Part shown: positions 35,689 through 41,658 of the stretch, in pieces
How the letters are laid out: the number at the start of each line of letters is the position of its first letter
How positions within the stretch are numbered: the first letter of the stretch is position 1
Source: Paracoccaceae bacterium
GTDB taxonomy: Bacteria; Pseudomonadota; Alphaproteobacteria; Rhodobacterales; Rhodobacteraceae
Direction: 5' to 3'
Assembly (NCBI GenBank): GCA_007692585.1
Contig: REBU01000115.1
Span: 1-51,096, forward strand
DNA: 51,096 nt
The notes under the pieces: generated by a model
What the model saw: only the letters and a program-made list of their open reading frames with translations
Told to the model about the DNA's origin: nothing
Database searches by the model: none
Position numbers and translations under genes: made by a program

Positions 35689-37902
<2,214 letters not shown>

Positions 37903-37903
37903 G

Positions 37904-39991
37904 GTGGCCGCACGGCCGGAAATCCTGTTCCCGCTCTTTGCGGGGCTGGACGCGTTGGATGGGATCGGCCCCAAGACGTCGCGGAATTTCAGTGCCTTGC
38001 AGATCGAGACCCCACGCGATCTGCTGTTTCACCTGCCGCTGAATCTGATCGACAGAACGCGGCGCGATACTTTGCGGGGGCTGGAGTTTCCCTGTGTGAC
38101 GACCGTCGAGGTCACGATCGGGCTGCATCAACCCCCGCGCGGGCGCGGGCCTTACCGGATTATCGTGCAGGACGCTCTGAGCGAGTTTCAGCTCGTCTTC
38201 TTCCACGCGCGCGGTGACTATTTGCAAAAATTGCTGCCGACCGGGGCGCGGCGGCTCGTTTCCGGGCGGGTCGAGCTCTACGATGGGATCGCGCAGATGG
38301 CGCATCCCGATCATATTCTGCGCCCTGAGGAAGCGTCTGATCTGCCCCAGACCGAGCCTGTTTATGCTCTGTGCGCGGGCGTTTCGGCCAAGCTGATGAG
38401 CAAGGCGGTGGCTTCGGCATTGGCGCGCGTGCCACAGCTTGCGGAATGGATTGATCCGGCACTGATGGCCCGCGAAGGCTGGCCTGATTTCCGCGAGGCG
38501 GTTTTGCGGGCGCATGCGCCACAGACCCTGGCGGAGATTGCGGCGACCGCTGCGCCCCGCGCGCGGCTGGCCTATGACGAATTGCTCGCCCATCAACTGA
38601 CACTCGCGCTTGCCCGCGCGCGCCAGCGGCGCAAGCCGGGGCGGGGGAGCCGTGGTACGGGCGCGTTGCAGGCGCGCGTTCTCGGCGCGCTCGAGTATAG
38701 TCCCACCGGCGCGCAGACCCGCGCGATTGCTGAAATCGCTTCTGACATGGCGGCCCCGAGGCGCATGAACCGGCTGTTGCAGGGCGATGTCGGCGCGGGG
38801 AAGACGCTGGTGGCCCTGATGGCCTTGCTGATCGCGGTTGAGGCGGGCGGACAAGGCGCGATGATGGCCCCGACCGAGATTCTCGCCCGCCAGCATCTCG
38901 AAAGCCTTGGCCCTCTCGCACAGAGTGCCGGGGTTGAAATTGCGCTTCTGACGGGCCGCGACAAGGGGGCCGAGCGCGCACGCAAGCTTGCGGCGCTGGC
39001 TGATGGATCAATCCAGATTGTTCTTGGCACGCATGCCGTCTTTCAGAAAGGTGTGGAGTTTCATGATCTTCGCCTTGCTGTGGTCGATGAACAGCACCGT
39101 TTCGGTGTCGCGCAGCGTGCGGCACTCGCAGAAAAAGGCGCGGGCGCCGATATGCTGGTGATGACGGCAACACCCATCCCCCGGTCGCTCGCGCTGGCAC
39201 AATATGGGGATATGGATGTCTCCATCCTCGACGAGAAACCGCCGGGCCGTAAACCGGTTCAGACGGCGCTTGTCGCGACAGCCCGTATGGAGGAAGTGGT
39301 CGCGCATTTGCGTCGTGCGATCGACGAGGGGCGGCAGGCCTATTGGGTTTGTCCCTTGGTCGAAGAATCCGAGCTCAGCACATTGACCGCGGCACAGGCC
39401 CGCTTCGAGCATTTGCGCGCGGCTTTGGGGGAAGGCGTCGTCGGTCTGGTGCATGGTCAGCTGGCCCCGGCGGAAAAGGACGCGGCCATGGCGCGTTTTG
39501 TCGCCGGGCAGACGAAACTGTTGGTCGCGACGACCGTGATCGAAGTCGGCGTGAATGTTCCAAATGCCTCGATCATGGTGATCGAGCGGGCCGAGAGCTT
39601 CGGTCTGGCGCAGTTGCACCAGTTGCGCGGGCGGGTTGGACGCGGGGCTGCGGCCTCGACCTGTCTGCTGGTTTACGAGCCGCCGCTGAGTGAGACCGCC
39701 TCGCGCCGTCTGAAGCTCTTGCGCGACACGGAAGACGGGTTTCGCCTCGCCGAGGAGGACATGGCGATCCGTGGCGCAGGCGATCTGATCGGCACTGCGC
39801 AATCGGGCCTGCCACGGTTTCGCGTGGCTGATCTGGAACGGCAGGCGGGTTTGCTGGCCATCGCGCAATCGGATGCGCGTAAATTGCTGACCGATGATCC
39901 GGATCTGAGCAGCCCGCGCGGGCAGGCGGCGCGGGTTCTGTTGTGGCTGATGGAGCAGGATAAAGCGATTCGCTATCTTTCCGTCGGATGA
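37904..39991 (+). CDS. recG: ATP-dependent DNA helicase RecG
   Basis: Fork-reversal and branch-migration helicase of about 695 aa. An N-terminal wedge (OB) domain is followed by SF2 motifs: Walker A LLQGDVGAGKTLVALMALL near residue 290, DEQH in VVDEQHRFGVAQR near 395, and VIEVGVNVPNASIMVIERAE and QLHQLRGRVGRGAAASTC (motifs V and VI). A GTG at 37904, one base after the ligA stop, is taken as start; TTG at 37889 is an alternative. Close spacing suggests a ligA-recG operon. Confidence 0.96.
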   Translation: MAARPEILFPLFAGLDALDGIGPKTSRNFSALQIETPRDLLFHLPLNLIDRTRRDTLRGLEFPCVTTVEVTIGLHQPPRGRGPYRIIVQDALSEFQLVFFHARGDYLQKLLPTGARRLVSGRVELYDGIAQMAHPDHILRPEEASDLPQTEPVYALCAGVSAKLMSKAVASALARVPQLAEWIDPALMAREGWPDFREAVLRAHAPQTLAEIAATAAPRARLAYDELLAHQLTLALARARQRRKPGRGSRGTGALQARVLGALEYSPTGAQTRAIAEIASDMAAPRRMNRLLQGDVGAGKTLVALMALLIAVEAGGQGAMMAPTEILARQHLESLGPLAQSAGVEIALLTGRDKGAERARKLAALADGSIQIVLGTHAVFQKGVEFHDLRLAVVDEQHRFGVAQRAALAEKGAGADMLVMTATPIPRSLALAQYGDMDVSILDEKPPGRKPVQTALVATARMEEVVAHLRRAIDEGRQAYWVCPLVEESELSTLTAAQARFEHLRAALGEGVVGLVHGQLAPAEKDAAMARFVAGQTKLLVATTVIEVGVNVPNASIMVIERAESFGLAQLHQLRGRVGRGAAASTCLLVYEPPLSETASRRLKLLRDTEDGFRLAEEDMAIRGAGDLIGTAQSGLPRFRVADLERQAGLLAIAQSDARKLLTDDPDLSSPRGQAARVLLWLMEQDKAIRYLSVG

Positions 39992-40006
39992 GTTCTTAAA
40001 ATGTTC
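39992..40006 (+). promoter_or_regulatory. Perfect alphaproteobacterial LexA (SOS) site
   Basis: GTTC-TTAAAAT-GTTC, an exact match to the direct-repeat LexA box GTTC-N7-GTTC described for Rhodobacter and other alphaproteobacteria. The central TAAAAT (39997-40002) is itself a good -10 hexamer; alternatively TTTACA (40007-40012) could be a -35. A second, one-mismatch copy on the other strand (GAAC-N7-CAAC) is at 40030-40044. The site is 57 bases upstream of the small membrane-protein start. Confidence 0.75.
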
Positions 40007-40063
40007 TTTACATGCGTCGGTGAGTGTGAGAACAAAGTAGCAACTCAAGTGATGGAGGATATG

Positions 40064-40165
40064 ATGACCCCGAAGAATATCCCTGATTTCTGGCAGGATC
40101 TGGCTGGTGCGCTGGCATTGGCTGTTCTGGTTGTTGCGACCCTGCATTTGCCGCTGTTTTCCTGA
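40064..40165 (+). CDS. 33-aa single-pass membrane protein, predicted SOS-regulated
   Basis: Tiny ORF too short for usual gene callers. GGAGG (40054-40058) lies five bases before ATG 40064 (an ATG one codon earlier is also possible). The protein starts MTPKNIPDFWQDLAG and then has one hydrophobic helix (ALALAVLVVATLHLPLF), so an inner-membrane protein with a short polar N-terminus is predicted. It has a perfect LexA site upstream and its own terminator downstream. In size, topology and control it resembles Caulobacter SidA (29 aa SOS division inhibitor acting on FtsW/FtsN); sequence homology is not claimed. Confidence 0.7.
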   Translation: MTPKNIPDFWQDLAGALALAVLVVATLHLPLFS

Positions 40166-40214
40166 CGCCTGCGGGTCAGCCTGTCTCATACTGCCTCGAC
40201 TGACCCTCTCACTG

Positions 40215-40244
40215 CCGCCGCGCCCGCCCGCGTGGCGGTTTTTT
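40215..40244 (+). terminator. Intrinsic terminator of the small membrane-protein gene
   Basis: CCGCC (40215-40219) pairs with GGCGG (40234-40238), with an inner CGCG pairing, followed by six T. It isolates the small gene from trmFO, 67 bases further on. Confidence 0.82.
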
Positions 40245-40311: not shown

Positions 40312-41658
40312 ATGGATCACAAATTGCATATCGTCGGCGGCGGCATGGCCGGGTCAGAGGCCGCCTGGCAGGCGGCGCAAATGGGCGTCGAGGTTGTGAT
40401 CCACGAAATGCGGCCCAAGAATGGCACCTTCGCGCATCAGACCGAGCATCTTGCGGAAATGGTCTGCTCGAATTCCTTCCGCTCCGATGATGACGAACAA
40501 AACGCGGTCGGGCTGCTGCATTGGGAAATGCGCGCAGCGGGTGGGCTGATCATGCAGATGGCTGACCGCCATGCTTTGCCTGCCGGCGGTGCCTTGGCCG
40601 TAGATCGTGACGCTTTTGCGCAGGCTGTAACGGAGGCGCTGCTGGCGCTGCCGAATGTCTCGGTCGCGCGTGATGAAGTGGCCGAGCTGCCGAAAGACGG
40701 ACATTGGATCATCGCCACTGGACCACTGACTTCAGACGCGCTGGGACAGGCCATCGCGGCTGAGACTGGGACGGATGCGCTTGCGTTTTTCGACGCCATC
40801 GCTCCGATCGTTTATTTTGACAGCATCGACATGTCGCAGGCCTGGTTCCAGTCACGTTATGACAAGGGCGAGACGGAAGCGGAGCGCAAGGCCTATCTCA
40901 ACTGCCCGATGACACGCGATCAATATGAAGCGTTTATCGACGCGCTTTTGGCCGCCGACAAGACTGAATTTCACGAAGGCGAAACAGCAGGCTATTTCGA
41001 CGGTTGCCTGCCCATCGAAGTGATGGCCGAACGCGGTCGCGAGACCTTGCGTCATGGGCCGATGAAGCCTGTGGGACTGACCAATCCGCACGCGCCCGAT
41101 GTAAAGCCCTATGCCGTGGTGCAGTTGCGTCGTGATAATGCACTGGGGACGCTCTACAATATTGTAGGTTTTCAGACGAAGATGAAATACGGCGCACAAG
41201 CCTCTGTTTTCAAGATGATACCAGGTCTGGCGGATGCGTCTTTTGCGCGTTTGGGCGGGATCCATCGCAATACATTTCTGAATTCGCCCACGCTTCTGGA
41301 TGACGGTTTGCGGCTACGTTCCAAGCCTCATATCCGCTTCGCAGGCCAGATTACCGGGGTAGAGGGGTATGTCGAATCCGCCGCAATGGGGTTGTTGGCC
41401 GGGCGTCTGGCCGCGGCAGAAATCCTTGGTCTACCCGCCAGCGCACCACCGCGCGACACTGCGATGGGGGCGCTCGTGCATCACATCACCGGCGGGGCAG
41501 ACGCCAAGACCTTCCAGCCGATGAATGTCAATTTCGGACTGTTTCCACCGATTGACGCGCGGGGCGGACGGCGTGGGCGACGCGACCGTTACAAAGCCTA
41601 TACGGACCGCGCGAAAGCGGCCTTCATGGACTGGCTTGGCGCGCGAGATGCCGCTTGA
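40312..41658 (+). CDS. trmFO: Folate-dependent tRNA (uracil-54-C5) methyltransferase TrmFO
   Basis: FAD and methylenetetrahydrofolate-dependent enzyme that makes ribothymidine at position 54 of tRNA. 448 aa. The N-terminal FAD motif [19 protein letters not shown] and the family-specific CSNSFRSDD (with Cys) near residue 58, plus [20 protein letters not shown] near 228, identify it. GAGAGG precedes the ATG at 40312. Gid/TrmFO replaces the SAM-dependent TrmA in many Rhodobacterales. Its end overlaps gluQ by 11 bases. Confidence 0.96.

What the first reader, a model, noticed from the sequence alone, without database searches (positions are those of the whole stretch)
39992..40244. LexA-boxed 33-aa membrane protein: possible new SOS division inhibitor (SidA-like design)
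Between recG and trmFO lies a self-contained unit: a perfect GTTC-N7-GTTC LexA site (39992), a -10-like hexamer inside it, GGAGG at 40054, a 33-codon ORF (40064-40165) with one membrane helix, and a terminator (40215-40244). Caulobacter SidA (29 aa, one helix, LexA-controlled) blocks division through FtsW/FtsN; this candidate has the same design. About 1.6 LexA-site matches are expected by chance in 51 kb counting both strands, so the site alone proves little; position plus ORF plus terminator is what counts.
Basis: partly seen in the sequence, partly recalled or inferred. Interest (0 to 1): 0.82.

Follow-up and report, generated by a model that had tools for sequence, protein, structure and literature searches.

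The report
SOS transcript: membrane peptide plus RNA
Next to recG, this bacterium and most of its relatives carry an unannotated gene that looks switched on by DNA damage; it encodes a tiny membrane protein and, in most relatives, a structured RNA tail whose loops match the start sites of cell-division genes, so it may be a hidden brake on division.

Summary
A perfect GTTC-N7-GTTC box (39992-40006), a 33-codon ORF (40064-40165) and a terminator are present. The box alone proves nothing (1.11 expected by chance). Conservation does: a profile of the peptide hits 251 of 295 family genomes; of 114 distinct loci, 112 have an exact box upstream and 110 have recG directly before. The same box precedes lexA and recA in this genome.

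CUGUCCC is the exact complement of GGGACAG, found in 39 of 90 mraZ start regions against 1 of 188 generic gene starts. ftsZ starts also match, post hoc.

Best reading: a LexA-controlled dual-function transcript that arrests division through a SidA-like peptide and, in most relatives, a base-pairing RNA. Expression, peptide function and RNA targeting are untested; RNA/mraZ covariation does not exceed that with the nearest relative. In the window's own genome the RNA is reduced and the mraZ site absent. I found no report of it in the papers searched.

The parts
37889..39991 (+). recG (upstream neighbour; the unit follows its stop codon directly)
   Evidence: ORF list; RecG C-terminus lies directly upstream in 110 of 114 orthologous loci
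39992..40006 (+). LexA (SOS) box GTTC-N7-GTTC
   Evidence: exact box in 112 of 114 orthologous loci; same motif (on the opposite strand relative to the gene) before lexA, recA, an IMS-family gene, an error-prone DNA polymerase and a photolyase in this genome
40007..40012 (+). presumed -35 element TTTACA abutting the box
   Evidence: TT[TG]AC at this exact offset in 101 of 112 loci
40027..40036 (+). conserved TGAGAACAAA: -10 region and/or inverted GTTC half-site
   Evidence: each base 88-97% conserved at offsets +35 to +44 from the box; assignment to -10 is inference
40054..40058 (+). Shine-Dalgarno GGAGG
40064..40165 (+). 33-codon ORF, single-helix membrane peptide
   Evidence: homologues in 251 of 295 family genomes; codon-position bias; one helix, residues 10-33 of the 34-residue version starting at 40061, mean pLDDT 86; hydrophobic, non-amphipathic segment with all K/R on its N-terminal side
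40173..40206 (+). reduced version of the conserved 3' RNA: hairpin GGGTCAG/CTGACCC with motifs CTGTCT (40181-40186) and CTGCCT (40191-40196) in its loop
   Evidence: full-length relatives
40215..40244 (+). intrinsic terminator (hairpin + T6)
   Evidence: terminator found after the ORF in 105 of 114 loci
40312..41658 (+). trmFO (downstream neighbour, not part of the unit)
   Evidence: a trmFO match was recovered in only 5 loci including the window, though many loci are too short to show it; the unit is tied to recG

Best explanation
The locus is an SOS gene conserved across Rhodobacteraceae (broad sense). LexA would sit on a box that abuts the -35; DNA damage removes LexA and one short transcript is made. 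Its ORF encodes a peptide (33 aa here, 37-45 aa in the other 28 aligned relatives) with one membrane helix, N-terminus inside by charge, which most likely slows division by acting on the membrane-embedded divisome, as SidA does. In most relatives the 3' half of the same transcript folds into a multi-branched RNA showing CUGUCCC and CUGCCUG in loops and single-stranded parts, which most likely pairs with the ribosome-binding region of mraZ (first gene of the division and cell-wall cluster) and perhaps ftsZ and lowers their translation. Peptide and RNA would thus hit one process twice. Shown by sequence: conserved coding, the box, the promoter layout, the RNA structure, the complementarity. Inferred: LexA binding, expression, one transcript, peptide target, RNA pairing, division arrest. 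In the window's own genome the RNA arm is reduced and probably weak or lost.
For: Conservation: 251 of 295 family genomes, 59 of 61 order genomes, all 61 of the same family; of 20 genomes without a hit, 17 had a recG locus, and 13 of those carry a small ORF there that reads by eye as a diverged copy. Box in 112 of 114 loci, recG before it in 110. Codon-position differences 1263/627/2635 over 126 close pairs. Own-genome boxes before lexA and recA. RNA: CTGCCTG 138 copies (expected 2.85) and CTGTCCC 120 (expected 3.55) in 105 3'UTRs, one or the other in 102 of 114 loci; motif unpaired probability 0.745 vs 0.41; mean folding z -2.78 over 100 cores without terminator; stems keep pairing through sequence change: first hairpin 4.97 vs 3.25 with swapped flanks (max of 200: 3.53), closing stem 6.57 vs 5.21, last hairpin 4.47 vs 2.91. 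Target: GGGACAG in 39 of 90 mraZ start windows vs 0 of 30 recA, 0 of 114 SOS ORF starts, 1 of 188 generic starts, 2 of 28 dnaA; it co-occurs with CTGTCCC in the RNA (27 of 42 vs 2 of 9, p=0.029; 28 of 43 vs 1 of 9, p=0.007, after mending one mis-cut UTR; ancestry not corrected); GGGAC is followed by AG in 41 of 69 cases. ftsZ windows: GGACAG in 11 of 30, ACAGGC in 22 of 30 vs 3 of 30 recA, 1 of 28 dnaA, 5 of 90 mraZ.
Against: No expression, LexA-binding or phenotype data. The RNA/mraZ covariation beats random swaps (0 of 500 reach it) but not the nearest relative (17 better, 16 worse, 17 ties of 50), so it may be shared ancestry. Per-genome ftsZ covariation is not significant (164 of 500, n=13); ftsZ became a candidate only after I looked at it as a control, and it rarely has the full GGGACAG (2 of 30 in 150-nt windows). 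dnaA also shows some excess complementarity (+0.29 vs +0.45 mraZ, +0.47 ftsZ, +0.05 recA). RNAalifold on a sequence-only alignment of 16 UTRs found no consensus structure, probably because the stems are misaligned. The window's own genome lacks GGGACAG at mraZ (it has one in the mraZ leader, 5' of the leader's terminator hairpin) and has a 79-nt UTR with altered loops. Other RNAs such as StsR could be the real partner of the mraZ site.
Confidence: 0.42

Rival explanations
1. SOS division inhibitor by the peptide alone (a functional SidA analogue); the 3' RNA only stabilises or terminates the message, or serves a role unrelated to division.
For: LexA box, one helix, N-in charge pattern, invariant D, G and P. 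In Caulobacter, loss of lexA causes filamentation through sidA (PMC12700426 passages), and SidA is a 29-aa inner-membrane protein acting on FtsW (PMC4211646 passages). In the window's own genome the RNA is reduced but the peptide persists.
Against: Does not explain why loop motifs, not just stems, are conserved in most relatives, nor the GGGACAG excess at mraZ.
Confidence: 0.25
2. SOS membrane toxin of the TisB/DinQ kind: the peptide damages or depolarises the membrane to slow growth or make persisters.
For: Small SOS-controlled membrane peptides of this kind exist in E. coli (TisB, DinQ; abstract starts as listed).
Against: The helix is not amphipathic (mean moment 0.09, mean Kyte-Doolittle 2.05). 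5' UTR plus ORF shows no special complementarity to the 3' RNA (-73.6 native vs -74.1 swapped, 60 loci); a separate antisense gene was not searched for. A usually single-copy gene kept in most genera is unlike a typical type I toxin.
Confidence: 0.12
3. The transcript is chiefly an SOS-induced small RNA; the peptide is a minor product, and the RNA targets genes other than the division cluster.
For: The RNA is highly structured with repeated conserved loops. Coding small RNAs and 3'UTR-derived RNAs are known in Rhodobacter sphaeroides, e.g. Pos19, UdsC, CcsR1-4 (passages). Only four genes were tested as targets.
Against: The peptide is under clear amino-acid constraint; of the four genes tested, mraZ and ftsZ match the loops best, dnaA and recA less.
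Confidence: 0.15
4. GGGACAG at mraZ is an operator for MraZ or a site for another RNA (StsR), and its match to the SOS RNA is coincidence.
For: StsR binds the dcw leader in R. sphaeroides (PMC8307010 passages). MraZ is recalled to bind GGG-type DNA repeats. Nearest-neighbour covariation is null.
Against: GGGAC is followed by AG in 41 of 69 cases, more than an operator built on GGG repeats alone would predict; the match is to a repeated loop motif over 7 nt, and the two co-occur.
Confidence: 0.3

Closest known systems
SidA of Caulobacter crescentus
   Same: LexA-controlled, 29 aa, small inner-membrane protein (PMC4211646 and PMC12700426, passages read)
   Different: No sequence homology shown; this family is 33-45 aa with its own invariant residues, lies after recG, and in most relatives carries a structured 3' RNA; division inhibition not tested
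DidA of Caulobacter crescentus
   Same: Small membrane division inhibitor induced by DNA damage (PMC4211646 passages)
   Different: DidA is induced by DriD, not LexA
SgrS/SgrT-type dual-function RNAs (recalled)
   Same: One stress transcript carrying a small peptide that acts at the membrane and a base-pairing RNA, both serving one pathway
   Different: SOS-controlled, here predicted for division; RNA after the ORF with several redundant loops
3'UTR-derived and coding sRNAs of Rhodobacter sphaeroides (ccaF1-CcsR1-4, RSP_7527-UdsC, Pos19)
   Same: Small ORF followed by, or containing, regulatory RNA in the same family of bacteria (passages)
   Different: Those depend on RpoE or RpoHI/RpoHII; this unit has a LexA box and different loop motifs (CUGUCCC/CUGCCUG)
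EcpR1 of Sinorhizobium meliloti
   Same: Stress-induced structured RNA whose conserved GC-rich loop represses cell-cycle genes (dnaA, gcrA); over-production elongates cells (PMC4414408 passages)
   Different: Rhizobiales, stringent-response regulon, loop UCCGCCGCAUCU; no peptide described in the passages seen
TisB and DinQ of Escherichia coli
   Same: SOS-controlled small membrane peptides (abstract starts)
   Different: Toxins regulated by antisense RNAs; the helix here is non-amphipathic

Membership tests
LexA (SOS) regulon | Alphaproteobacterial LexA box overlapping or abutting the promoter, conserved in orthologues | tested here: met
   exact box in 112 of 114 loci, starting 15 nt before TT[TG]AC in 101 of 112; same motif before lexA and recA here; a Caulobacter LexA box of the same form in PMC12700426 (passages)
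LexA (SOS) regulon | Derepression by DNA damage or in a lexA mutant | not testable with these tools
   needs RNA measurements
SidA family | Sequence homology to SidA | tested here: inconclusive
   profile A1 found no convincing match outside the family in 385 class genomes (three at E 0.0016-0.0046); SidA sequence itself not available (its paper is not held)
SidA family | Very small single-pass inner-membrane protein | tested here: met
   one helix; one hydrophobic segment with no K/R after it in 29 of 29; predicted, not measured
SidA family | Blocks division through FtsW (and FtsN) | not testable with these tools
   needs two-hybrid, suppressor and microscopy data
TisB-type SOS toxin | Amphipathic membrane helix (recalled as a TisB feature) | tested here: not met
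   mean hydrophobic moment 0.09 in the hydrophobic segment
TisB-type SOS toxin | Antisense RNA antitoxin | not tested
   no antisense gene was searched for; 5' UTR+ORF versus own 3' RNA shows no special pairing
Dual-function (coding and base-pairing) RNA | Conserved ORF and conserved structured RNA in one transcription unit | tested here: met
   met in most relatives, in reduced form in the window; one unit inferred from one promoter and one terminator, not from transcripts
Dual-function (coding and base-pairing) RNA | Proven RNA target | tested here: inconclusive
   GGGACAG at mraZ in 39 of 90, co-occurrence p=0.029 (0.007 after mending one row), but nearest-neighbour test null
Rfam, Pfam, NCBIfam, PHROGs or PDB family | Match to a described family | tested here: not met
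   Rfam, 12 loci: only sub-threshold matches to one unrelated family, none over the 3' RNA; Pfam and NCBIfam: 0 of 29 members; PHROGs: two families with one member each at E 0.025 and 0.036; PDB: none

The most novel reading that the evidence does not exclude
Rhodobacteraceae carry a core, unannotated SOS checkpoint gene whose single transcript arrests division at two levels: a membrane peptide that jams the divisome and a multi-loop RNA that shuts translation of mraZ/dcw and ftsZ. It would be an RNA-plus-peptide counterpart of SulA/SidA, with the RNA arm decaying together with its target site in some lineages, the window's among them.
Probability: 0.28. Interest if true: 0.88.

Novelty: new variant of a known kind. 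Interest (0 to 1): 0.74.

Why it matters
I found no account of how Rhodobacteraceae stop dividing after DNA damage in the open papers searched (listings; passages of PMC6473078, whose main text does not name recG or a small protein). This unit is present in most genera sampled, sits in a fixed place and is small enough to be missed by annotation. It gives named, testable targets (FtsW/FtsN side for the peptide; mraZ and ftsZ start sites for the RNA). If right, it would link the SOS response to the RNA-based control of the dcw cluster already known in R. sphaeroides (UpsM, StsR), and be an SOS regulator that combines a membrane peptide with a base-pairing RNA.

Tried and rejected
Longer ORF: the 54-aa frame starting at 40001 begins inside the LexA box and has no ribosome site there; the family start lies 60-110 nt after the box start. 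Rejected.

Box as a regulator of trmFO or recG: recG ends before the box, and trmFO was recovered in only 5 loci, though many loci are too short to show it. Rejected.

Phage origin: one viral-contig hit (L418) is the end of an 866-aa frame without box or recG. Rejected.

Pairing of the 3' RNA with its own 5' half: no excess over swapped partners (60 loci), and no GGGACAG in the 5' parts of 99 loci; GGCAGG, complementary to CCTGCC, occurs 22 times there and was not followed. Rejected for now.

UdsC of R. sphaeroides as the same RNA: UdsC is 67 nt and RpoHII-dependent (PMC9779115, PMC8625941 passages). Rejected as identical, though the R. sphaeroides locus itself was not fetched.

Consensus structure from a sequence-only alignment: none found; I used alignment-free flank-swapping tests instead.

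Other copies of the RNA array: an exact pattern in 41 genomes hit the SOS locus in 7 genomes and 6 other places, against 2 for the reversed pattern. I read five of the six by eye (not L214) and did not test coding; only L209 was followed.

A slip found on checking: the UTR of L164 had been cut at an early T-run and counted as lacking CTGTCCC; mended, which also takes one more genome (52 instead of 51).

Literature: no report of the unit seen in the open PMC library (searches; listings, with passages of nine papers read); subscription papers were not searchable.

Full report
What is there. Directly after the recG stop lies GTTCTTAAAATGTTC (39992-40006), then TTTACA (40007-40012), TGAGAACAAA (40027-40036), GGAGG (40054-40058), a 33-codon ORF (40064-40165), and a 79-nt 3' stretch that ends in an intrinsic terminator (40215-40244). 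The box is the only one in the window; 1.11 are expected by chance. In the genome it occurs 65 times against 77 for the reversed pattern. The '-10 inside the box' is not borne out: in 101 of 112 orthologous loci TT[TG]AC starts exactly 15 nt after the box start, so LexA would sit next to the -35.

Conservation of the peptide. A tblastn search of 295 genomes of the family gave weak matches, many of them in short open frames. Of the 30 best loci, 29 have a short ORF with the exact box upstream and 27 have RecG directly before it (L056 has neither and is not a true copy). An alignment of 29 peptides has the consensus MxxxxKxxLxRxxxTLWQDAxGAxSLxVxLxxxLHLPxxx with the start M, D, G and P invariant. 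A profile finds it in 251 of 295 family genomes, about one genome per genus, and in 59 of 61 genomes of the order, all 61 of the same family. In a class-wide draw of 385 the five own-family genomes listed have it, with three weak hits elsewhere (E 0.0016-0.0046). Twenty named loci include Mameliella, Tropicibacter, Pelagimonas, Rhodovulum and Sagittula. Several share exact contig lengths with genomes of the family draw (e.g. Sagittula salina 485467 = G262:C28; Pseudoponticoccus marisrubri 479022 = G025:C2), which is how I take the unnamed family to be Rhodobacteraceae in the broad sense; NCBI places these two in Rhodobacterales, Roseobacteraceae. I examined 20 of the 44 genomes without a match: 17 have a recG locus; 9 of these carry an exact box with a small ORF, 4 a small ORF without an exact box, 4 nothing recognisable; for the other 3 no true recG was found (homology of these ORFs judged by eye). 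Over 126 close pairs the differences fall 1263/627/2635 on codon positions 1/2/3, as expected for a translated ORF. Of 114 distinct loci (116 less two chance hits, L066 and L068), 112 have the exact box (exceptions L108, one half-site changed, and L139) and 110 have RecG before it. Loci were chosen by peptide score, so very diverged copies are under-represented.

The box is this genome's SOS box. Among own-genome boxes (38 loci held of 65 matches; only those with AT-rich spacers read), boxes lie 17-64 nt before lexA, recA, an IMS-family gene, an error-prone DNA polymerase and a photolyase, there on the strand opposite to the gene. The genes were named from their first 90 residues, so four NCBIfam scores are below the full-length cut-offs; the IMS match passes Pfam's. 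A Caulobacter LexA box of the same form is given in PMC12700426 (passages).

The peptide. AlphaFold gives one helix, residues 10-33 of the 34-residue version, mean pLDDT 86. In 29 of 29 members the hydrophobic segment (mean Kyte-Doolittle 2.05) has no K or R after it; its mean moment is 0.09. That fits an N-in single-pass anchor and not an amphipathic pore former. No Pfam or NCBIfam family matches any of 29 members, PHROGs gives two stray weak hits, the PDB none.

The part that was missed: a structured 3' RNA. In 105 of 114 loci my rule finds a terminator after the ORF; the stretch from stop codon to the end of the T-run is mostly 130-210 nt. CTGCCTG occurs 138 times (2.85 expected) and CTGTCCC 120 times (3.55 expected) in these 105; one or the other is present in 102 of 114. 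The motifs (CTGYCY) are mostly unpaired: mean unpaired probability 0.745 over 328 motifs against 0.41 for other hexamers, in 94 UTRs. Cores without terminator fold better than dinucleotide shuffles (mean z -2.78, 68 of 100 below -2). Stems pair better with their own partner than with another species' partner: first hairpin 4.97 against 3.25 (n=86; largest of 200 swaps 3.53), closing stem 6.57 against 5.21 (n=91; 5.49), last hairpin 4.47 against 2.91 (n=78; 3.45). Against this, RNAalifold on a sequence-only alignment of 16 found nothing. Rfam has no entry that matches this part (12 loci). In the window the RNA is reduced to one hairpin with CTGTCT and CTGCCT in the loop, plus the terminator.

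A candidate target. R. sphaeroides controls its dcw (division and cell wall) cluster through a long RNA leader, UpsM, described as special to Rhodobacteraceae, and the sRNA StsR (PMC5089854, PMC8307010, passages). I therefore looked at mraZ, the first dcw gene, first in 14 genomes, then in 90. The 90 are 90 of the 144 genomes with a hit: the 30 best and 60 chosen by me from the list, mainly genomes whose SOS locus I held; they overlap the first 14. GGGACAG, the exact complement of CUGUCCC, occurs in 39 of the 90 windows (-75 to +6 from the tblastn match start); 30 of its 41 occurrences begin within 21 nt of that start, often between the ribosome site and a GTG start (by eye). Controls: 0 of 30 recA, 0 of 114 SOS-ORF starts, 1 of 188 generic ORF starts, 1.5% of random windows; 2 of 28 dnaA. 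Genomes whose RNA has CTGTCCC have GGGACAG at mraZ more often: 27 of 42 against 2 of 9, p=0.029; 28 of 43 against 1 of 9, p=0.007, after mending one mis-cut UTR; neither is corrected for ancestry. GGGAC is followed by AG in 41 of 69 cases. The longest perfect match of the motif loops averages 6.79 nt at the mraZ start (52 genomes), 6.31 at ftsZ (13), 5.40 at dnaA (15), 4.82 at recA (11), and 4.85 in the window upstream of the mraZ start; upstream of ftsZ it is 5.77. ftsZ, fetched as a control, turned out to have a conserved CAGGC (28 of 30) and GGACAG (11 of 30) in its start region, also complementary to the loops; this is post hoc.

What speaks against targeting. Own RNA beats random partners at mraZ (0 of 500 swaps reach it) but not the partner of the nearest relative (17 better, 16 worse, 17 equal of 50), so common descent can explain the covariation. 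For ftsZ the swap test is not significant (164 of 500). The window's own genome has no GGGACAG at mraZ and no GGACAG at ftsZ; it has one GGGACAG in the mraZ leader just 5' of the leader's terminator hairpin. The RNA arm may be lost in this lineage. dnaA shows some excess too. A MraZ operator or a StsR site could explain GGGACAG. Only four genes were tested.

Mechanism proposed. Damage, RecA activation, LexA cleavage, one transcript; the peptide inserts into the membrane and slows the late divisome (analogy to SidA, PMC4211646 passages); the RNA lowers mraZ and perhaps ftsZ translation. LexA control: about 0.93. Translated conserved peptide: 0.97. Conserved structured RNA: 0.95. Division arrest as the function: about 0.55. 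RNA pairing at mraZ in most relatives: about 0.45. Both arms together: about 0.3.

Comparison. It works like SidA in design and like SgrS/SgrT (recalled) in combining peptide and RNA; membership in SidA is not shown. Known Rhodobacter 3'UTR or coding RNAs (CcsR1-4, UdsC, Pos19) depend on RpoE or RpoHI/RpoHII (passages). I rate it a new variant of a known kind.

Noticed in passing
ftsZ start regions, L358-L387: The ftsZ start region in these genomes is unusually conserved (CAGGC in 28 of 30; the full CAGGCGGACAG in 9 of 30), which looks like more than a plain Shine-Dalgarno would need.
   Followed up: partly
mraZ leaders, L224-L327: Many leaders (the UpsM region) carry a hairpin loop GTGGCAGCAG, complementary to the CTGCC part of the SOS RNA.
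   Followed up: partly
L209, about 1501-1561 (genome G020): A second CTGCCTG/CTGTCCC array with a GATCCCGG...CCGGGATC stem lies between a small gene after a pyrF-like gene and a NUDIX-like gene next to a Y-family polymerase-like gene (names by eye); no exact LexA box in the locus.
   Followed up: partly
promoter of the unit in relatives; window 39982-40006: Most relatives have a third GTTC half-site 10 nt upstream of the box (87-96% per base); the window lacks it, because that place is recG coding sequence.
   Followed up: partly
window 40030-40044 and relatives: The sequence after the presumed -10 has a conserved GAACAAA, a short variable gap, then GCAACAAA (window: GCAACTCAA); its role is unknown.
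   Followed up: no
L139 and L108: Two loci have lost or altered the box while keeping the peptide: natural tests of LexA dependence.
   Followed up: no
G187 and G293: Two genomes have two matches to the peptide profile at E<=0.001, possible paralogues.
   Followed up: no
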